From contig NZ_CP023069.1 in assembly GCF_002288525.1 (NCBI RefSeq), positions 186,001 through 250,000 of the forward strand: a stretch of 64,000 bases of DNA. The letters run 5' to 3'. The position numbers and the translations under genes are program-made. This DNA is from Sinorhizobium sojae CCBAU 05684. GTDB lineage: Bacteria; Pseudomonadota; Alphaproteobacteria; Rhizobiales; Rhizobiaceae. The notes beneath the pieces were generated by a model. The model did not search any database, was not told the DNA's origin, and was given only the letters and a program-made list of their open reading frames with translations. Positions 3,800-58,816 of the stretch are shown here, one piece after another (the first letter of the stretch is position 1; each line of letters begins with the position of its first letter).

Positions 3800-4731
3800 G
3801 AGCCTGACCGAAAAAGAGTTGAGTGAAATCAGCCAGTTGTGATTCTGTTTGTTTGCTTAGGACGAACGGAGACCACAATGGGCTGGACTGATTTCACCCG
3901 TCGGCAATATGCCCGACGCGCAAGGCGGTATGCAAGCGATCTGACGGACCGGGAATGGGGATTGATCTCGCCTTGCCTGCCTGGACCGCGGCGGTTGGGC
4001 AGGCCGCGCAGCACCGATCTTCGCGAGGTCGTGAATGCGTTGCTTTACATCGCCACGACGGGGTGCCAGTGGCGGATGATGCCCAAGGATTTTCCGCCTT
4101 TTACAACTGTCCAGTCCTATTTCTACGAATGGCGAGCGACAGGGTTATGGGGTCGGATCAACCATCATCTTGTGATGGAGGCGCGCGAATTGGAAGGCCG
4201 GGAAGCCTCGCCATCTGCTGGCGTGATTGACAGTCAAAGCGTGAAAACCACGGAAAGCGGCGGAATTTCGGGCTATGACGCGGGCAAGAAGATCAAGGGA
4301 CGGAAGCGTCATATCGTCGTCGACACGCTCGGGTTGATGGTCGGCCTCAGGGTTCACAGCGCCGATATCCAAGATCGCGACGGCGCACCTGCCGTCCTCA
4401 AAACCATTCTCAAGCGCTGGCCGTGGCTGAGACATATCTTCGCCGACGGTGGTTATGCCGGACCGAAGCTGAAGGGCGCACTCCAAAAGATCGCTGCCTT
4501 CACTCTCCAGATCGTCAAGCGGACCGACAAGGCCAAGGGCTTCGAAGTTCTGCCGCGGCGCTGGGTCGTGGAGCGCACCTTCGCATGGCTTGGCAGATGC
4601 CGACGATTGGCTAAGGATTGGGAGAAGTCCATCGCATCAGCCGAGGCTTGGATCACTATCGCCCACATCCGGGTCCTGACACGACGCTTGGCAAGGTACG
4701 GATATTGTTGAGACCTTTTCGAGTCAGGCTC
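3800..4731 (+). mobile_element. IS5-family insertion sequence, copy 1 (932 bp, TSD TAA)
   Basis: Ends are GAGCCTGACCGAAAAAG on the left and the imperfect inverse CTTTTCGAGTCAGGCTC on the right. A 3-bp target repeat TAA lies at 3797-3799 and 4732-4734. It contains one full transposase gene. Translations in all frames are the same as in the copies at 35489-36420 and 45290-46221, pointing to recent transposition. The insertion sits at the stop codon of the downstream minus-strand gene and recreates its TAG. Confidence 0.93.
3878..4711 (+). CDS. IS5-family transposase (copy 1)
   Basis: A 277-residue single-ORF DDE transposase starting MGWTDFTRRQYARRARRY. The N-terminal DUF4096-like segment (LTDREWGLISPCLP) is followed by the catalytic core with GVIDSQSVKTTE (first D), HIFADGGYAG (second D) and RRWVVERTFAWLGRCRRL (E). 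The ATG at 3878 is preferred over the upstream GTG at 3839 because a purine-rich GACGAACGGAGACC site precedes it and the family starts here. Intact and likely functional. Confidence 0.93.
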   Translation: MGWTDFTRRQYARRARRYASDLTDREWGLISPCLPGPRRLGRPRSTDLREVVNALLYIATTGCQWRMMPKDFPPFTTVQSYFYEWRATGLWGRINHHLVMEARELEGREASPSAGVIDSQSVKTTESGGISGYDAGKKIKGRKRHIVVDTLGLMVGLRVHSADIQDRDGAPAVLKTILKRWPWLRHIFADGGYAGPKLKGALQKIAAFTLQIVKRTDKAKGFEVLPRRWVVERTFAWLGRCRRLAKDWEKSIASAEAWITIAHIRVLTRRLARYGYC

Positions 4732-10318: not shown

Positions 10319-11209
10319 GATTTAAGTTCCTCCTGTTGCATATATCCAATCCCCCGCCAGACGCTCAGTTTACTGCCTCGGCTTCGGCGTGGTTGCGGCA
10401 ATCGGCATTAGAGAAGATTCGACAAGCAAGCTCCCGAATGTCTGATCCAAATCGCGCTTGATAAAGCGAGTCGAAGGTCGCCACGGCGGGGAGGTTCTCG
10501 GGCGCCGTCGTGCCGCCGGCCCGGGCTCGACTGCGAGATATGCCCCTGTGCTGCCTCGGCTCGACCAGGCGCGCGCAGCCGGTTACGTCTGCATCTGAAA
10601 CGATCCACCCCTTGATGATCGGAAGGCGGGCTCGGCAGAAACCATTGGCTAACATGTCGAAATCTCTGCGCGATAAGGTGGGTCCGTGACGTGTCCTGCA
10701 AATGCCTAGAAGCAATATGCGTGCCAAAAGGAAGAACTCTTCTTAATGCAACGAAATGACTCAAGCAGCGGTCTCGCGTGTCCAACATTGTCGTACATAG
10801 GACGAGCCTCAACCTGACATTAATCGTAACACTGTATGTCTGTCTTCGTGGCCGAGTGGCTCGTCCTACACTGCACTTCCAAGGTTGCTCGGATGAGCCG
10901 ACCCGATCCTAATCATAGGAGGACGAGCCGTGGCAGATTATCGGCTACGCCGCATCAGCGTCTGGTTGCCGACGCTCACGCGTCAGATGTAGCCGCTCCC
11001 GTCTGCAGGAAATCTACGCCGGGCTAGATCCTGTCCCGCTATTTGCGCGATATCCGCGCCCGTGCAGGAGCGACTCGCTGCGTTTGCCGACACTCCGCCG
11101 GCCATGCGCTCTGACGGGGTAGATCAGCCGATCGACCTTTTCCTGGCGAGTTTGCGGACTGGAAAGAGAGAGCTACCGGCGGACGGATCGCCCGCTTGCG
11201 AAAACCAAA
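10319..11209. other. Region without a recognised gene
   Basis: Several overlapping short frames (10365-10727 and 10408-10812 minus; 10836-11027 and 11062-11562 plus) give no recognisable family. The stretch lies between a decaying monooxygenase gene and transposase debris and is probably non-coding remnant DNA. Confidence 0.4.
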
Positions 11210-33452: not shown

Positions 33453-33880
33453 GTGAAACATATCGTTGCAACCTTATTCGGGATACTGTTTGCTACAGCT
33501 GCCAATGCCGCCGGCGATAGTCATGCACTGGCGAGCTTGAACGCGCGCTGACTACCGGCAAACCGGTGAGTGTGACGGTCGATTTAGGCATGTGCACTCC
33601 GGCGACTGCCGATACACCGTCGACCAAGACGCGTGGAGGCGTTAGCATAGACGGCTATAGGATCACATCTGACGGCACCCTCGCTTTTGCAGATCAGCAT
33701 TTTACCATAGATCGTGACGGTAAGCCGGTTGTCCAGTTTCTTCGTTACCGGATCCGGCCGGACGGTGGCGCCGAATTCACCATGGTCGTCTTCAATGTGC
33801 CCAGTTACGAGCGAAAAGGAACGAGCCTGGTCTATAAGTGCTCAATTGGTCACGGATTGAGCTTCTTCTCTTCACCGTGA
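33453..33880 (+). pseudogene. VirK family protein, frameshifted
   Basis: The GTG at 33453 (AGAGGA 8 bases upstream) opens a signal peptide (VKHIVATLFGILFATAANAA) that stops after about 30 codons. The family body, TTGKPVSVTVDLGMCTP, KTRGGVSIDGYRITSDGTLA, FLRYRIRPDGGAEFTMVVFN and VYKCSIGHGLSFF, lies in another frame, shifted at about 33510-33530. VirK proteins are secreted, of unknown function, first known from Agrobacterium virulence regions. One indel inactivates it, unless it is a sequencing error. Confidence 0.72.
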
Positions 33881-34011
33881 TCTGGCATGTTGCAGCACGA
33901 TCGCGCGGGTTCGGGTGGCGGATCGTCCCGGATCGGCGGCTGAAGGTTTTCCTGTGGCACCCGCCCGTGCCATTTGCAGTGGTCCCGATAGGTAAAGGAA
34001 CCCGCCTGCCG

Positions 34012-35488
34012 CTATCCTTGAGCTTCTTCAATGCGGTCTTTCATGCCGTCGCTGGTCTGCCAAGCATAGCGGTCACCGAGGTCCTCTTCGATCACGCCGG
34101 CCGCGTATAACTGATCGAGCAGGTCGGCGACTGCAAGTACGCTCATTCCATCCGTCGAGGCCCGCATAACCAACTCCGAGGCTGTAAAGTTGCCGCACGC
34201 GATTAGATGGCCAACCGAGATCGGAGCGTAGTCGAGCACCCGGTGTTCCATGCTTCGCGAGCGGAGATGGAAGCAGCGGTCTCCCGCTGTGTACTCCAGG
34301 TCCCTGCGAAAGCGGATCGGCAGGTCGGGGGCTGGGCTCTCGAGCATATGTTGATCAATCATGCTCTTGAGCCCGTCCCGGAACTCGTCAGGCGTCCTGA
34401 ATGACCGTTGACCCACTATGCGATACCCGAGGGGCCAGCGTTCGCTACCCGGTACCGGCGTCACTAGTTGCAAACGTCTCTGCGGCATATTTACGAGGAA
34501 GCCGGAAACACAGGCGATCGTCGTGTGATTGCGCTCCGTCAAGGCGATTGCCTCTTGCCTCGCACTGAGTTTCTCCTTCCGCTTGCGCGCACGCCCCGTG
34601 AAAGCCTTTGCGGTCGGGGCGTCCTTGCCCTGCATGATGAGTTCGACCCCTGTCAGTTCTTCAGGCGAAAACGCCCTGTGGATCTGATTGAGATGTGCCG
34701 TGCTGAGCACAGAGAAGCGATTCATCGTAGTGCCATAAAGATTGAAGAGGCCGAGCACGCGCCTGGTGAGTGCCTCATCCTTGAGCGGGGCGGCCGTCGT
34801 TGTTTGCGGCAATGCGCCCGTGATCTGATAGTAGTCGAAGAGAAAGCGGTCGTACTGCGGGTTGTCCATTGGCTCTGTGGCCCAGTAGCAGAACCCAGTA
34901 CGAGCTGCCGGGCCAAACACCTCGCTCGCGACACCAACCACGCCGCGCCAAAGCTCTGCATGCTGTTTGCTATACTCGTAATAGCCTTTGAACGGAGCGG
35001 CCGAGAGGCCGCAGAACCAGCAACCGACGGTGCACCCTTCCCTCAGCTCGAAAGCGATGATGGGGTGTGTGATCGACGGTGCTGATCCGCCCAATTCGTC
35101 ATTACAACGCCGAATTTGGCGCTCGCGCCAGGCATGAAAGCGAGGGTTGGTCATTGACATATCGCCATGGTCGCGCAGGAGGTCGCGATGGCGCAACATG
35201 TCGCGCATGTACTCGTCCCACATTATCGACAGCGGCCATGGTGCAGACTCCGGCTTGTAGCGGTAAGTAAGATGATCATCGCGCCAGAGCGGCAGTATCT
35301 CCAGTGGGTCAACTTCAATGCCATAGCGCTCTGTTACCGCGCGAGGGGCGTCGGCGCTCTCCGAAACCGCGGTGCGGAACTTTATGTCACCAGCCAGCCG
35401 TTCCATGAAACGCTTGATGTGCGACAAGGTGCGCCGTTGCTCCGGCGTGCGCCGGTTAAAGATCTGGCGCCAATACTCGCCTTTATAA
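34012..35488 (-). pseudogene. PoyD-type radical SAM peptide epimerase, 5' end cut by IS5
   Basis: About 490 residues of a radical SAM enzyme. The cluster motif C-x3-C-x2-C is CTVGCWFC in FELREGCTVGCWFCGLSAAP, a form I associate with RiPP-maturation amino acid epimerases (PoyD/OspD family, TIGR04517), which convert L- to D-residues in a precursor peptide. Upstream of the TTG at 35427 the frame stays open (YKGEYWRQIFNRRTPEQRRT) to the IS5 edge at 35488, showing that the N-terminus is missing here. The first 24 residues are beyond the IS at 36421-36492. Excising the IS leaves the two parts one base out of frame. Translation from TTG 35427 might still give a shortened enzyme. Its presumed substrate gene is at 36540-36917. 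Confidence 0.82.
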
Positions 35489-36420
35489 GAGCCTGACCGA
35501 AAAAGAGTTGAGTGAAATCAGCCAGTTGTGATTCTGTTTGTTTGCTTAGGACGAACGGAGACCACAATGGGCTGGACTGATTTCACCCGTCGGCAATATG
35601 CCCGACGCGCAAGGCGGTATGCAAGCGATCTGACGGACCGGGAATGGGGATTGATCTCGCCTTGCCTGCCTGGACCGCGGCGGTTGGGCAGGCCGCGCAG
35701 CACCGATCTTCGCGAGGTCGTGAATGCGTTGCTTTACATCGCCACGACGGGGTGCCAGTGGCGGATGATGCCCAAGGATTTTCCGCCTTTTACAACTGTC
35801 CAGTCCTATTTCTACGAATGGCGAGCGACAGGGTTATGGGGTCGGATCAACCATCATCTTGTGATGGAGGCGCGCGAATTGGAAGGCCGGGAAGCCTCGC
35901 CATCTGCTGGCGTGATTGACAGTCAAAGCGTGAAAACCACGGAAAGCGGCGGAATTTCGGGCTATGACGCGGGCAAGAAGATCAAGGGACGGAAGCGTCA
36001 TATCGTCGTCGACACGCTCGGGTTGATGGTCGGCCTCAGGGTTCACAGCGCCGATATCCAAGATCGCGACGGCGCACCTGCCGTCCTCAAAACCATTCTC
36101 AAGCGCTGGCCGTGGCTGAGACATATCTTCGCCGACGGTGGTTATGCCGGACCGAAGCTGAAGGGCGCACTCCAAAAGATCGCTGCCTTCACTCTCCAGA
36201 TCGTCAAGCGGACCGACAAGGCCAAGGGCTTCGAAGTTCTGCCGCGGCGCTGGGTCGTGGAGCGCACCTTCGCATGGCTTGGCAGATGCCGACGATTGGC
36301 TAAGGATTGGGAGAAGTCCATCGCATCAGCCGAGGCTTGGATCACTATCGCCCACATCCGGGTCCTGACACGACGCTTGGCAAGGTACGGATATTGTTGA
36401 GACCTTTTCGAGTCAGGCTC
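35489..36420 (+). mobile_element. IS5-family insertion sequence, copy 2 (932 bp, TSD TAA)
   Basis: Same ends and length as copy 1, with TAA at 35486-35488 and 36421-36423. All six-frame translations equal those of copies 1 and 3. It sits inside the 5' end of the radical SAM epimerase gene, between the codons for about residue 24 and the rest, in the opposite orientation. Confidence 0.93.
35567..36400 (+). CDS. IS5-family transposase (copy 2)
   Basis: A 277-residue transposase, identical in translation to the copies at 3878-4711 and 45368-46201, with GVIDSQSVKTTE, HIFADGGYAG and the terminal VVERTFAWLGR catalytic region. Intact. Confidence 0.93.
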   Translation: MGWTDFTRRQYARRARRYASDLTDREWGLISPCLPGPRRLGRPRSTDLREVVNALLYIATTGCQWRMMPKDFPPFTTVQSYFYEWRATGLWGRINHHLVMEARELEGREASPSAGVIDSQSVKTTESGGISGYDAGKKIKGRKRHIVVDTLGLMVGLRVHSADIQDRDGAPAVLKTILKRWPWLRHIFADGGYAGPKLKGALQKIAAFTLQIVKRTDKAKGFEVLPRRWVVERTFAWLGRCRRLAKDWEKSIASAEAWITIAHIRVLTRRLARYGYC

Positions 36421-36492
36421 TAAGGTGAGCCCTTGAAGCCGTTTCTTGTAGGCCAGATCGCATGTCTCGTTCCCGATGATATTTGCTGTCAT
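36421..36492 (-). pseudogene. N-terminal fragment of the radical SAM epimerase
   Basis: The ATG at 36492, 48 bases after the precursor stop, begins MTANIIGNETCDLAYKKRLQ and runs 24 codons into the IS5 right end. Its position and the presence of the truncated maturase just beyond the IS make it the original start of that gene. A weak GAAGAG site precedes it. Inferred from context; so short a fragment cannot be assigned by family alone. Confidence 0.6.
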
Positions 36493-36539
36493 GCTCTCTT
36501 CGCACCGATCGTCCAAGCCAATGCGCTCCGGTAAAAAAA

Positions 36540-36917
36540 TCAGCTTGAAACATGAACAACAATTACAACAAGTTGAACGACCGCGGCGACGGCGGCGCCC
36601 TTTTCAGCCATATGCAACGGCCGCGTGAGTCCATCCGTAACGGGACTATCTAAGGCAGTAGATTGTACAAAGCGCGGCAAGGCCGGAACGCGCGAGCCAC
36701 GCTTGCTGTTCGCCATCGCGTCGAGCTTCTTGCCAGTAGACTTCCGTCGGCTGTCCAATCGGATGTAGTTTTGAACTTCGTCAAGCGTTATGTTGTAGCC
36801 GAGACTCTTTCCGATCGCTACGATTGGTGCAAGACCCGTGGCACTTGGCTTGAGGTTTGCAGGCAGCCTGCCTTTGTCCAAATCGTTGACGAATCGCTCT
36901 ACGTCAGCTCGCGCCAT
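36540..36917 (-). CDS. Nif11-leader RiPP precursor peptide
   Basis: A 125-residue protein. Residues 1-52 match the Nif11 leader domain ([11 protein letters not shown] at 6-16, [20 protein letters not shown] at 32-51). A basic linker follows, and the C-terminal 19 residues, [19 protein letters not shown] (107-125), are almost all Val, Ala and Ile. Nif11-type leaders guide RiPP enzymes, and Val/Ile-rich cores are the usual substrates of PoyD/OspD epimerases. AAAGGA lies 7 bases before the ATG, and a -24/-12 promoter starts 72 bases upstream. No double-glycine cleavage site is evident, so the exact core is unknown. No transporter or protease gene is nearby. Confidence 0.82.
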
Positions 36918-36988
36918 AGCTAATTCCTTTGCTCATAGTTGCCAATTACACCGCCTCGCTCTTGCCGGCGTGGATGATGCCGTGAACG

Positions 36989-37005
36989 AGCAAGCGCCGT
37001 GCCAA
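36989..37005 (-). promoter_or_regulatory. Sigma-54 (-24/-12) promoter of the RiPP operon
   Basis: On the minus strand the sequence is TTGGCACGGCGCTTGCT, an exact match to the TGGCACG-N4-TTGC consensus with GG-N10-GC spacing. It points to the precursor gene, whose ATG is 72 bases further. The nearest perfect TGT-N10-ACA NifA site is 590 bases upstream at 37589-37604; a near match (TGT-N10-ACC) is at 37049-37064. Confidence 0.82.
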
Positions 37006-37556
37006 CCTAAAAATGTCGTCATTTTGTGCATTTTCAGAGTGCATGCATTGTCAACTTGCCGACCTTTAGTCCCGAACCGGCCAATCGGCCGCTCCGAAAT
37101 GTAGACATCCGCAAAATTCTTCACTAAGGACAGCGCTCTCTTTTTGCCCGCTCAGTTGCGGATTCCGCCAGTCGATTCATTCAGTGAAACATCGGGATAC
37201 GCTCAAAAGCGTGACGACGGCGTAGCGGCGTCAGAGAGAAGCGTCGACGAATCACGCACTGCCAAACGGCCGGCACAGCAGGTCGACGACCCCCCGCGGC
37301 GGTGGGGAGATCAGAGCTGTATGCGTATCATGGACATGACCCAGGCTCATGCAACCCTGACCGCGACCAGCGCTGAAGCAGGCCGACGGCATCGGGTTGG
37401 CACTTTAGGCACCGACGCATTAGCAATGGACGCGCATCTGCGCCGACTCGGTATCAGCGATGTGCATTATGATCTGTCTAGGTTTCGATCGCCTTGGTCT
37501 TCCGACCCTTCCATGCACCACGTGCCAACGAGTTTTATTACAACCTGCTAACCGCT
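37006..37556. other. Intergenic region between nifW and the RiPP operon
   Basis: It holds a possible degenerate NifA site at 37049-37064 and a 30-base scar of an IS66 tnpB end near 37150-37180 (minus frame IDWRNPQ). The rest, including the plus-strand frame 37144-37551, gives nothing recognisable. Insertion debris here may have moved the nifW-end NifA site away from the RiPP promoter. Confidence 0.45.
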
Positions 37557-38009
37557 TCATTCCAGCGCGTCCGGAGCCGCGACTACTTTGTCGGACTGAT
37601 GACATCGCTGTGTCGCAACCCCGCCGCAGTCACTGATTTCGGATGGCTGCAAGAGTTCTTCCAATGGTACGAAGACTTGGATCGGCGCAGCAGCTTTGGT
37701 CGGCTCGCGATCCTCAAGCACCTTGAAAACACGATGTTTGAGTGGCGACGAAGTTGCAAAGTCCCTGTAAGCGCGCTCGAGTGCGGCGCGCGCACGGGTG
37801 GCGGCCGTGCCTGTGGGGAGATCGGAAAAGTCCTCCGCGACCAGATACTGACCCATGCGCTTCATTATGTGGAGCCGTGATGTGTTTAGCACCTTTGGGT
37901 CATAGGTGACGCCGAGGGCATCGAAGAACTCCTCGGCGGCCGACAAATCCTTCAGCCAAGTCAGAATGTCAGTGCCATCAGGGGCAAAGGTCGCATCATC
38001 ATAAGACAT
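37557..38009 (-). CDS. nifW: Nitrogenase-stabilising protein NifW
   Basis: A 150-residue NifW. The family core is clear: LSAAEEFFDALGVTYDPKVL, SRLHIMKRMGQYLVAEDFSD, then FATSSPLKHRVFKVLEDREP and VFVPLEELL. NifW protects the MoFe nitrogenase component from oxygen damage. It is longer than usual (about 110 residues) through a short N-terminal extension and a 25-residue tail. AGGAGA lies 6 bases upstream of the ATG. It follows nifS by 163 bases. A decayed copy of its 3' half is at 56840-57003. Confidence 0.93.
   Translation of the reverse strand: MSYDDATFAPDGTDILTWLKDLSAAEEFFDALGVTYDPKVLNTSRLHIMKRMGQYLVAEDFSDLPTGTAATRARAALERAYRDFATSSPLKHRVFKVLEDREPTKAAAPIQVFVPLEELLQPSEISDCGGVATQRCHQSDKVVAAPDALE
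37589..37604. promoter_or_regulatory. NifA upstream activator sequence in the 3' end of nifW
   Basis: TGT-N10-ACA (TGTCGGACTGATGACA) inside the last codons of nifW. The homologous position in the decayed nifW copy is the activator site of fixA (56835-56850), so this was probably a fixA-type enhancer. Here the next sigma-54 promoter downstream is that of the RiPP operon, 590 bases away. Confidence 0.55.
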
Positions 38010-42986: not shown

Positions 42987-43003
42987 AGCAATGGCCGTGC
43001 CAG
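42987..43003 (-). promoter_or_regulatory. Sigma-54 promoter upstream of the decayed dctA
   Basis: Minus-strand CTGGCACGGCCATTGCT, an exact TGGCACG-N4-TTGC match, 90 bases before the dctA' start. dctA is classically transcribed by RpoN with DctD, so the promoter outlived its gene. Confidence 0.75.
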
Positions 43004-45289: not shown

Positions 45290-46221
45290 GAGCCTGACCG
45301 AAAAAGAGTTGAGTGAAATCAGCCAGTTGTGATTCTGTTTGTTTGCTTAGGACGAACGGAGACCACAATGGGCTGGACTGATTTCACCCGTCGGCAATAT
45401 GCCCGACGCGCAAGGCGGTATGCAAGCGATCTGACGGACCGGGAATGGGGATTGATCTCGCCTTGCCTGCCTGGACCGCGGCGGTTGGGCAGGCCGCGCA
45501 GCACCGATCTTCGCGAGGTCGTGAATGCGTTGCTTTACATCGCCACGACGGGGTGCCAGTGGCGGATGATGCCCAAGGATTTTCCGCCTTTTACAACTGT
45601 CCAGTCCTATTTCTACGAATGGCGAGCGACAGGGTTATGGGGTCGGATCAACCATCATCTTGTGATGGAGGCGCGCGAATTGGAAGGCCGGGAAGCCTCG
45701 CCATCTGCTGGCGTGATTGACAGTCAAAGCGTGAAAACCACGGAAAGCGGCGGAATTTCGGGCTATGACGCGGGCAAGAAGATCAAGGGACGGAAGCGTC
45801 ATATCGTCGTCGACACGCTCGGGTTGATGGTCGGCCTCAGGGTTCACAGCGCCGATATCCAAGATCGCGACGGCGCACCTGCCGTCCTCAAAACCATTCT
45901 CAAGCGCTGGCCGTGGCTGAGACATATCTTCGCCGACGGTGGTTATGCCGGACCGAAGCTGAAGGGCGCACTCCAAAAGATCGCTGCCTTCACTCTCCAG
46001 ATCGTCAAGCGGACCGACAAGGCCAAGGGCTTCGAAGTTCTGCCGCGGCGCTGGGTCGTGGAGCGCACCTTCGCATGGCTTGGCAGATGCCGACGATTGG
46101 CTAAGGATTGGGAGAAGTCCATCGCATCAGCCGAGGCTTGGATCACTATCGCCCACATCCGGGTCCTGACACGACGCTTGGCAAGGTACGGATATTGTTG
46201 AGACCTTTTCGAGTCAGGCTC
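45290..46221 (+). mobile_element. IS5-family insertion sequence, copy 3 (932 bp, TSD TTA)
   Basis: Same ends and length as copies 1 and 2, with TTA at 45287-45289 and 46222-46224. It interrupts the ORF starting at 45073. Confidence 0.93.
45368..46201 (+). CDS. IS5-family transposase (copy 3)
   Basis: A 277-residue transposase with the same translation as the copies at 3878 and 35567 (GVIDSQSVKTTE, HIFADGGYAG, VVERTFAWLGR). Intact. Confidence 0.93.
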   Translation: MGWTDFTRRQYARRARRYASDLTDREWGLISPCLPGPRRLGRPRSTDLREVVNALLYIATTGCQWRMMPKDFPPFTTVQSYFYEWRATGLWGRINHHLVMEARELEGREASPSAGVIDSQSVKTTESGGISGYDAGKKIKGRKRHIVVDTLGLMVGLRVHSADIQDRDGAPAVLKTILKRWPWLRHIFADGGYAGPKLKGALQKIAAFTLQIVKRTDKAKGFEVLPRRWVVERTFAWLGRCRRLAKDWEKSIASAEAWITIAHIRVLTRRLARYGYC

Positions 46222-51062: not shown

Positions 51063-51079
51063 TGCAAGCGCTGTGCCAA
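51063..51079 (-). promoter_or_regulatory. Sigma-54 promoter of nifB
   Basis: Minus-strand TTGGCACAGCGCTTGCA with GG-N10-GC spacing, between nifA and nifB, so nifB-fdxN-nifZ-nifT has its own promoter. Confidence 0.88.
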
Positions 51080-58799: not shown

Positions 58800-58816
58800 A
58801 GCAAGCGGCGTGCCAC
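58800..58816 (-). promoter_or_regulatory. Sigma-54 promoter of the peroxiredoxin gene
   Basis: Minus-strand GTGGCACGCCGCTTGCT, an exact TGGCACG-N4-TTGC match. The nearest NifA sites are the two upstream of nifQ at 59046-59089, which could serve both directions. Confidence 0.75.

What the first reader, a model, noticed from the sequence alone, without database searches (positions are those of the whole stretch)
34012..37005. Nif11-leader RiPP with a PoyD-type epimerase inside the nif region
A 125-residue Nif11-leader precursor ends in a run almost entirely of Val, Ala and Ile (107-125). The next gene is a radical SAM enzyme with the CTVGCWFC motif of RiPP amino acid epimerases. Known relatives (PoyD, OspD families) place D-residues in Val/Ile-rich cores. 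This suggests that a rhizobium makes an epimerised, hydrophobic peptide during symbiosis. No transporter, protease or other tailoring enzyme lies nearby, so the system is minimal or uses genes elsewhere.
Basis: partly seen in the sequence, partly recalled or inferred. Interest (0 to 1): 0.9.

Follow-up and report, generated by a model that had tools for sequence, protein, structure and literature searches.

The report
Nodule-linked epimerised peptide pathway, broken here
Many root-nodule bacteria carry a small two-gene pathway, usually under a nitrogen-fixation type promoter, that appears to make a short greasy peptide with mirror-image amino acids; in this strain a jumping gene has cut off the start of its key enzyme.

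Summary
The pair is real. The enzyme is a PoyD-type epimerase by model (E 1e-167, full profile). The precursor is a divergent Nif11-type RiPP precursor: its own Pfam hit (18.1 bits) is under the cut-off of 23.8, but relatives in the same gene position reach 41.6. Intact copies exist in NGR234, CCBAU 83666 and S. shofinae.

The family is more than a local pair. A precursor or remnant lies upstream of the epimerase in 58 of 60 loci. In Bradyrhizobium the epimerase occurs in 25 of 113 nodC-positive and 0 of 100 nodC-negative genomes. A sigma-54 site with 0-2 mismatches lies in 37 of 46 distinct upstream regions. Published data already hold three precursors, not treated as RiPPs in the passages seen. 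A natural deletion in one clade joins leader to tail, pointing to the last ~20 hydrophobic residues as core. Chemistry and function remain inferred.

The parts
36540..36917 (-). RiPP precursor ORF, 125 aa, divergent Nif11-type leader plus hydrophobic C-terminal tail
   Evidence: ORF; Pfam Nif11 18.1 bits, under cut-off 23.8; homologous to Nif11 precursors in the same gene position
36774..36917 (-). leader part, residues 1-48 (Nif11-like)
   Evidence: Pfam match to residues 1-47; conserved block ERFVnDL...ATGLA...GYnfTlDE
36543..36599 (-). inferred core, residues 107-125, [19 protein letters not shown]
   Evidence: hydrophobic tail kept in 46 distinct homologues; 24 of 29 changes at hydrophobic positions stay hydrophobic; leader joined directly to tail in the S. 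americanum clade
36989..37004 (-). sigma-54 -24/-12 promoter-like site TGGCACGGCGCTTGCT, 71 bp upstream of the precursor ATG
   Evidence: exact match; similar position in relatives
37049..37064 (-). degenerate NifA upstream-site-like sequence GGTCGGCAAGTTGACA (one mismatch to TGT-N10-ACA)
   Evidence: the NXT3 relative has the exact TGTCGGCAAGTTGACA 155 bp upstream of its start
35489..36421 (+). IS5-family insertion element that separates precursor and epimerase and removes the epimerase start
   Evidence: flanks 36422-37100 identical to L009, 33900-35488 with 2 mismatches in 1589 bp
35528..36400 (+). IS5-family transposase gene (NF033580, 265.5 bits)
   Evidence: two further ORFs in the window with the same translation
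34012..35488 (-). PoyD-type radical SAM peptide epimerase, 5'-truncated; longest ORF with a start codon is 34012-35427 (TTG, 471 aa)
   Evidence: TIGR04517 558.6 bits; truncation
35011..35034 (-). CTVGCWFC radical SAM cluster motif (Cys132, Cys136, Cys139 of the 471-aa ORF)
   Evidence: Cys at these columns in 61 of 61 aligned open frames, near-copies included
34510..34512 (-). Cys306, candidate hydrogen-donor cysteine (Cys180 is the other invariant one)
   Evidence: invariant in 61 of 61; role by analogy with Cys372 of PoyD as described in PMC8326336 (passages)
37557..38009 (-). nifW, neighbour upstream of the precursor
   Evidence: NF002009, 179.7 bits
38173..39336 (-). nifS, neighbour
   Evidence: ORF; annotated nifS at this place in NGR234 and CCBAU 45436

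Best explanation
This is the damaged S. fredii-type copy of a small RiPP pathway that is widespread in root-nodule bacteria. SHOWN by sequence: a Nif11-type precursor stands directly upstream of a PoyD-type radical SAM epimerase, in most lineages behind a sigma-54 site; in the two genera tested the epimerase occurs only in nodC-positive genomes; in the window an IS5-family element has removed the start of the epimerase. SHOWN by others' data, matched here: three precursors of the family appear in published bacteroid or rpoN data sets. INFERRED: in nitrogen-fixing bacteroids NifA and sigma-54 switch the operon on; a C-terminal RRE of the epimerase binds the leader; the enzyme abstracts alpha-hydrogens in the Val/Ala/Ile tail and re-donates hydrogen from a conserved cysteine, setting D-residues at spaced positions; lineages with the second enzyme (15 of 32 loci) add C-methyl groups; the tail (about 18-20 residues) becomes a protease-resistant, membrane-inserting peptide. 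No exporter or dedicated protease recurs nearby, so it either stays cell-bound, is released on lysis, or uses general machinery. In the window strain precursor transcription should continue, but epimerisation has probably stopped.
For: Epimerase model, full length; cluster cysteines plus Cys180 and Cys306 invariant in 61 of 61 open frames; AlphaFold2 model (pLDDT 77.3, pTM 0.79) with PDB hits to RRE domains (8t19 and 5v1v, prob 0.99 and 1.00, E 0.05 and 0.10) and to a radical SAM enzyme (4k36, E 0.046). Precursor or remnant upstream in 58 of 60 loci. Sigma-54 site with 0 / 1 / 2 mismatches in 4 / 20 / 13 of 46 distinct upstream regions. Nodulation link: Sinorhizobium 16 of 33 genomes with a match (14 over cut-off), all 16 among the 31 nodC-positive; Bradyrhizobium 25 of 213 with a match (22 over cut-off), all 25 nodC-positive (113 of 213) and nifH-positive (133 of 213 over cut-off), Fisher p 3e-8 and 4e-6 (species are not independent events); an even sample of the class has 3 of 385 over the cut-off, own genome included. 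Expression: MCHK_12735 (12.54 kDa) and pRL100099 (14.45 kDa, pI 8.86) in bacteroid proteomes; the first tag is the precursor in L005, the second equals the precursor in L008 in computed mass and pI. DOA9 nif11, site TGGCACGCTCCTTGC, reported lower in rpoN mutants, equals the site found in L033. Epimerase dN/dS 0.17-0.27 in 11 of 15 pairs. Tail kept hydrophobic, 24 of 29 changes against 52% expected, p 5e-4.
Against: The window strain's enzyme is truncated and the genome has no second copy. The precursor itself is under the Nif11 cut-off and that of NGR234 gives no Pfam hit at E up to 0.1. 9 of 46 upstream regions have no sigma-54 site: four of the R. leguminosarum group, two Microvirga, one marine, two internal S. 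meliloti copies, although a protein matching the R. johnstonii precursor is found in bacteroids. The nearest exact NifA site starts 687 bp upstream of the window's precursor. No PDB fold hit of the model reaches E 0.001, most listed hits are Rubisco barrels, and the aligned range is not given, so the RRE reading is weak. The epimerase is broken or fragmentary in several strains and absent from most nodC-positive genomes tested (no match in 88 of 113 Bradyrhizobium and 15 of 31 Sinorhizobium), so it is not essential. The published falls are not specific: in PMC8436566 they are among 111 lowered genes, and pRL100099 goes up (1.23) in the gmcA mutant. Outgroups (Methylococcaceae, a marine MAG) and Microvirga, not tested for nodC, carry relatives. 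No D-residue, mature mass or activity is known to me.
Confidence: 0.72

Rival explanations
1. The tail is only a membrane anchor and the precursor acts as an unprocessed small membrane protein; the epimerase acts elsewhere or on another peptide.
For: Double-glycine cleavage site missing in the S. fredii type and no protease or exporter recurs nearby. Precursors were detected in proteomes as named proteins.
Against: The two genes are linked in 58 of 60 loci across rhizobial genera and one outgroup; in 15 of 32 loci a second peptide-modifying enzyme, TIGR03975, joins them; the enzyme model has weak hits to RRE domains.
Confidence: 0.15
2. In the window strain the epimerase still works: translation starts at the internal TTG, as annotated in CCBAU 45436, CCBAU 25509 and SMH12.
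For: TIGR04517 covers the TTG-started ORF from profile position 1; the frame is otherwise intact with 2 changes against L009; annotated as a 471-aa CDS in three strains.
Against: The TTG codon is residue 35 of the intact protein and falls inside a predicted helix (residues 29-47); the segment HYRQIFDRRTPEQxRTL before it is conserved; the element stands between promoter and gene, its transposase gene in the opposite orientation.
Confidence: 0.2
3. The pathway is a mobile bacteriocin-type cassette used against competing bacteria, carried on symbiosis plasmids only because these are conjugative and gene-rich.
For: Patchy presence and broken copies; 49 of 59 plasmid records with a match are typed conjugative; the tree mixes genera.
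Against: Absent from nodC-negative Bradyrhizobium (0 of 100); sigma-54 sites of the nif type; lowered in abiEi mutant nodules together with nif and fix genes, though among 111 genes; no immunity or export gene recurs nearby.
Confidence: 0.25

Closest known systems
PoyD / polytheonamide pathway (and PlpD, OspD, AvpD of cyanobacteria)
   Same: Same epimerase model (TIGR04517), CxxxCxxC motif, V/A/I-rich core; many rhizobial loci also carry a RiPP radical SAM C-methyltransferase, as polytheonamide does (that last point recalled)
   Different: Nif11-type, not nitrile-hydratase-type leader; inferred core of about 18-20 residues against 48; nitrogen-fixation-type promoter; no protease or transporter recurs nearby
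Nif11-type RiPP precursors (PF07862 / TIGR03798)
   Same: Leader of this type in the better-scoring members
   Different: The S. fredii precursors score below the cut-offs and lack the double-glycine site
Epipeptide YydF and its epimerase EpeE (formerly YydG)
   Same: Radical SAM epimerisation of Val and Ile in a membrane-active peptide (PMC8326336, passages)
   Different: Enzyme without significant homology to the PoyD type and with a second cluster (same passages); own export and protease genes (recalled)
Gramicidin A (recalled, works-like only)
   Same: Short Val/Ala/Leu-rich peptide in which alternating L and D residues allow a membrane beta-helix
   Different: Non-ribosomal; no evidence here for the D-pattern or for a channel

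Membership tests
PoyD-type RiPP epimerase (TIGR04517) | score over the curated cut-off along the whole model | tested here: met
   558.6 bits against 325, positions 1-446 of 446
PoyD-type RiPP epimerase (TIGR04517) | CxxxCxxC cluster motif and a strictly conserved further cysteine | tested here: met
   Cys132, 136, 139, 180, 306 invariant in 61 of 61 open frames; which of 180 and 306 equals PoyD Cys372 was not determined
PoyD-type RiPP epimerase (TIGR04517) | C-terminal RRE | tested here: inconclusive
   strand-strand-strand-helix-helix-helix at 412-476 of the model; RRE-domain hits with prob 0.99-1.00 but E 0.05-0.10, aligned range not shown
PoyD-type RiPP epimerase (TIGR04517) | L-to-D epimerisation of a precursor | not testable with these tools
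   needs D2O labelling and chiral analysis
PoyD-type RiPP epimerase (TIGR04517) | intact reading frame with its own start in the window | tested here: not met
   start removed by the IS5-family element
Nif11-type RiPP precursor (PF07862 / TIGR03798) | leader over the model cut-off | tested here: inconclusive
   window 18.1 bits against 23.8, not met by itself; 5 of 10 relatives over the cut-off; TIGR03798 matches 5 of 8 at E up to 1
Nif11-type RiPP precursor (PF07862 / TIGR03798) | double-glycine before the core | tested here: not met
   absent in the window; present as VGGK in M. huakuii and others
Proteusin in the strict sense (nitrile-hydratase-like leader) | NHLP leader | tested here: not met
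   no such Pfam or NCBIfam hit for the precursor at E up to 1
NifA / sigma-54 regulon | -24/-12 promoter | tested here: met
   exact site 36989-37004; 37 of 46 distinct upstream regions with 0-2 mismatches
NifA / sigma-54 regulon | TGT-N10-ACA upstream site near the promoter | tested here: not met
   only a one-mismatch form at 37049-37064 in the window; exact sites 138-229 bp upstream of the start in the NXT3, USDA1963, one Mesorhizobium and several Bradyrhizobium loci
NifA / sigma-54 regulon | NifA-dependent expression in nodules | not tested
   published data concern M. huakuii, R. leguminosarum (pRL tags) and DOA9, not this strain

The most novel reading that the evidence does not exclude
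Nitrogen-fixing bacteroids of many legumes make a short D/L-alternating Val/Ala/Ile peptide, a ribosomal counterpart of gramicidin, whose membrane insertion changes bacteroid or symbiosome membranes; its repeated loss (IS insertion, frameshift, truncation) would then reflect host-genotype-dependent selection.
Probability: 0.15. Interest if true: 0.95.

Novelty: new variant of a known kind. Interest (0 to 1): 0.7.

Why it matters
Nodule chemistry is usually read from the plant side (for example plant peptides that act on bacteroids; recalled). A bacterial peptide with D-residues made at the nitrogen-fixing stage would be a new class of symbiosis molecule, and it is directly testable because two well-studied strains (NGR234 and R. 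johnstonii 3841) carry intact genes and a deposited proteome with a matching precursor exists (PXD017485, named in PMC7105596). It also offers a very small natural set for studying PoyD-type enzymes: one precursor, one enzyme, one short core.

Tried and rejected
Considered and dropped: (1) an anaerobox (FnrN/FixK) as the promoter where sigma-54 sites are missing: none found within 500 bp in the 8 loci searched, 4 of them of the R. leguminosarum group. (2) The methyltransferase elsewhere in the window's genome: no match with the L008 protein (the tool warns that an empty answer without a positive control shows nothing). (3) Nearness to nif genes as a general rule: rejected, 2 of 41. (4) A PDB relative by sequence: five hits, best E 0.48, none a radical SAM enzyme by name. 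(5) Phage carriage: no match in the phage collection. (6) dN/dS of the window copy after the insertion: only 2 changes against L009, no inference possible. (7) NGR234 locus names y4wG-y4wL (recalled names) in the literature: three papers in the listing, two with y4wH, none opened. (8) The proteome paper on S. fredii CCBAU25509 and 45436 (PMC6865838) holds none of the four terms tried in its main text. (9) VIA-align comparison: library not available.

Rows dropped or limits: the tree (quick method, with long-branch warnings for the outgroups and Microvirga) used 45 of 61 open frames, near-copies left out by name; its methyltransferase labels were set by hand. Frames under 400 aa (L046, L048, L049 and one part of L035) were not in the cysteine count. 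The neighbour count used 32 of 60 loci, ORFs of at least 90 aa, flanks of at most about 8-10 kb and often less. Precursor selection figures come from 12 chosen pairs that share lineages, so the p-value is optimistic; part of the precursor dN/dS run failed and is not used. The precursor profile was built from 8 sequences that include the window's. The genome scan used two short peptide patterns and will miss relatives.
Full report
What is there. On the minus strand, downstream of nifS and nifW, lies a 125-codon ORF (36540-36917) and then, beyond an IS5-family element, a radical SAM ORF (34012-35427). The enzyme matches TIGR04517 (radical SAM family RiPP maturation amino acid epimerase) over the full profile at 558.6 bits, cut-off 325. 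The precursor matches Pfam Nif11 at 18.1 bits, under the cut-off of 23.8. The genome holds one epimerase; a search for the C-methyltransferase of relatives found nothing there (no positive control).

The insertion. Compared with the uninterrupted locus of Sinorhizobium shofinae CCBAU 251167 (L009), window 36422-37100 is identical and 33900-35488 differs at 2 of 1589 bases; 35489-36421 is extra and holds an IS5-family transposase. Two more ORFs with the same transposase translation lie in the window. The element removes the first codons of the epimerase; the remaining frame has no ATG, GTG or TTG before the TTG at 35427, which is residue 35 of the intact 505-residue protein. Intact pairs are in NGR234, CCBAU 83666 and L009. 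In the model of the intact protein (pLDDT 77.3) residues 29-47 form one helix, so a TTG-started product would begin inside it. I conclude that this strain's copy is probably inactive; a weak internal start is not excluded.

The family. A search of 72,556 plasmid records gives 52 with a match to the window's enzyme, 50 of them in rhizobial genera (Rhizobium 24, Sinorhizobium 20, Mesorhizobium 5, Aminobacter 1) and 2 cyanobacteria, and 59 with the M. huakuii enzyme. A scan of one genome per species with two peptide patterns gives 41 loci: 38 in Sinorhizobium/Ensifer, Rhizobium, Mesorhizobium, Bradyrhizobium and Microvirga, 3 outgroup loci. In 32 loci compared for shared neighbours, clusters present in at least 4 loci were the precursor, the epimerase, a TIGR03975 C-methyltransferase (15 of 32), a GNAT-like gene (4 of 32), a transposase (5 of 32) and ORFs antisense to or overlapping these. 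The tree places the window in a Sinorhizobium-Mesorhizobium group without the methyltransferase; the presence of that gene needs 5 changes, at least 3 forced by well-supported branches. The epimerase is under purifying selection: of 15 pairs, dN/dS is 0.17-0.27 in 11, 0.34, 0.48 and 0.03 (near-saturated dS) in three, and undefined in one.

The nodulation link. Sinorhizobium: 16 of 33 genomes have a match and 14 are over the cut-off; all 16 are among the 31 with nodC; 29 of 33 have nifH over the cut-off. Bradyrhizobium: 25 of 213 have a match (22 over the cut-off); all 25 have nodC (113 of 213) and nifH (133 of 213 over the cut-off); Fisher p 3e-8 and 4e-6. Even samples of the order and of the class give 1 of 397 and 3 of 385 over the cut-off, own genome included (4 and 7 at E up to 0.001). 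In Bradyrhizobium genomes of at most four contigs the epimerase lies within about 310 kb of a nifH on the same contig in 10 of 13 (read; exceptions G445, G502, G608). These are counts of species, not of independent gains, and most nodC-positive genomes have no epimerase (88 of 113 Bradyrhizobium, 15 of 31 Sinorhizobium).

Promoters. An exact sigma-54 site ends 71 bp upstream of the window's precursor; five exact sites occur in the window, and sites with up to one mismatch number 12 against 2.5 expected. Over 46 distinct upstream regions the best site within 300 bp has 0, 1, 2 or more mismatches in 4, 20, 13 and 9, in those with 0-2 mismatches 55-150 bp before the start, mostly 66-90. The two-mismatch sites alone would be weak evidence (3.5-9% of shuffles reach them); their steady position is what counts. 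Exact NifA sites within 250 bp are found in a minority; the window has a one-mismatch form.

Published data that fit, and how far. PMC8436566 (part 1 of 2 of the section with table 4): in abiEi mutant nodules of M. huakuii, two Nif11 precursors (log2 -6.00, -4.35), an amino acid epimerase (-4.46), a maturation protein 1 (-3.03) and an N-acetyltransferase (-3.22), all listed on pMHa, fall together with fixA, nifB, nifT, nifX and nifZ on pMHb; they are among 111 lowered genes, and I could not map these tags to coordinates. PMC10454058 (outline and one passage): MCHK_12735, 12.54 kDa, ratio 0.50 in the hypE mutant, bacteroid proteome; this tag is the precursor in L005, computed mass 12.54 kDa. 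PMC7105596 (passages): pRL100099, 14.45 kDa, pI 8.86, in bacteroids, raised (1.23) in the gmcA mutant; the precursor in L008 computes to 14.45 kDa and pI 8.86, the tag itself was not matched. PMC13207237 (passages): nif11 of Bradyrhizobium DOA9 has reduced expression in rpoN mutants in free-living culture, predicted site TGGCACGCTCCTTGC at -76; L033 has that site 74 bp upstream of the precursor next to an epimerase and a methyltransferase. None of the passages seen treats these as a RiPP pathway. Ten searches of this open-access library listed no paper on rhizobial PoyD-type epimerases; some listings were cut (12 of 3,101 shown), subscription journals and preprints are not held.

Where the core is. 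In 46 distinct precursors the last 18 residues are 80% V/I/A/L (rest 34%), while the middle is variable. In S. americanum and relatives (L004, L013, L015) the middle is missing and the leader runs straight into EEKxPGFAAVVV...; the epimerase frame is full-length in these three, though truncated in the related GR64 (L075). At hydrophobic tail positions 24 of 29 replacements stay hydrophobic, against 52% for random single-base changes (p 5e-4). This delimits the inferred core to about 18-20 residues.

How it probably works. By analogy with PoyD as reviewed in PMC8326336 (passages): alpha-hydrogen abstraction by the 5'-deoxyadenosyl radical, back-donation from a cysteine, D-residues at 1,3-spaced positions, RRE at the C-terminus. 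The rhizobial enzymes have the cluster cysteines and two further invariant cysteines. The fold search gave no hit at E 0.001; RRE domains appear with high probability but E 0.05-0.10, a radical SAM enzyme at E 0.046, and most other listed hits are Rubisco barrels. A D/L-alternating tail of this length could span a membrane as a beta-helix; that step is speculation.

Verdict. New variant of a known kind; interest 0.7.

Noticed in passing
3839-4711, 35528-36400, 45329-46201: Three IS5-family transposase ORFs with the same translation, all on the + strand; one interrupts the epimerase.
   Followed up: partly
10711-10726, 42987-43002, 51063-51078, 58800-58815 (-): Four further exact sigma-54 -24/-12 matches in the window; 51063 lies in the 5' part of a nifB-like ORF and 58800 about 100 bp upstream of a peroxiredoxin-like ORF (both gene names recalled from the translations, not searched).
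   Followed up: no
33566-33880 (+): ORF at the place of the NGR234 VirK-family gene (438 bp there), shorter here and in CCBAU 45436 (291 bp) and 25509 (219 bp); the identity of the window's ORF was not searched.
   Followed up: no
L007 7605-9882: S. meliloti USDA1963 carries four tandem precursor copies before the epimerase, one of them split into two frames.
   Followed up: partly
L069, L070, L071, L075, L048: Broken or fragmentary epimerases in S. medicae WSM419, S. meliloti SM11, R. leguminosarum BIHB 1217, S. fredii GR64 and B. huanghuaihaiense; a precursor frame is intact in L071, L075 and L048 but decayed in L069 and L070.
   Followed up: partly
L008, L036, L037, L049: R. leguminosarum-group loci lack a recognisable sigma-54 site although a protein matching the R. 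johnstonii precursor is detected in bacteroids; the promoter is unknown.
   Followed up: partly
L039, L040: Two Microvirga species carry two divergent epimerases side by side, a methyltransferase on the other strand and a GNAT-like gene, without a sigma-54 site.
   Followed up: no
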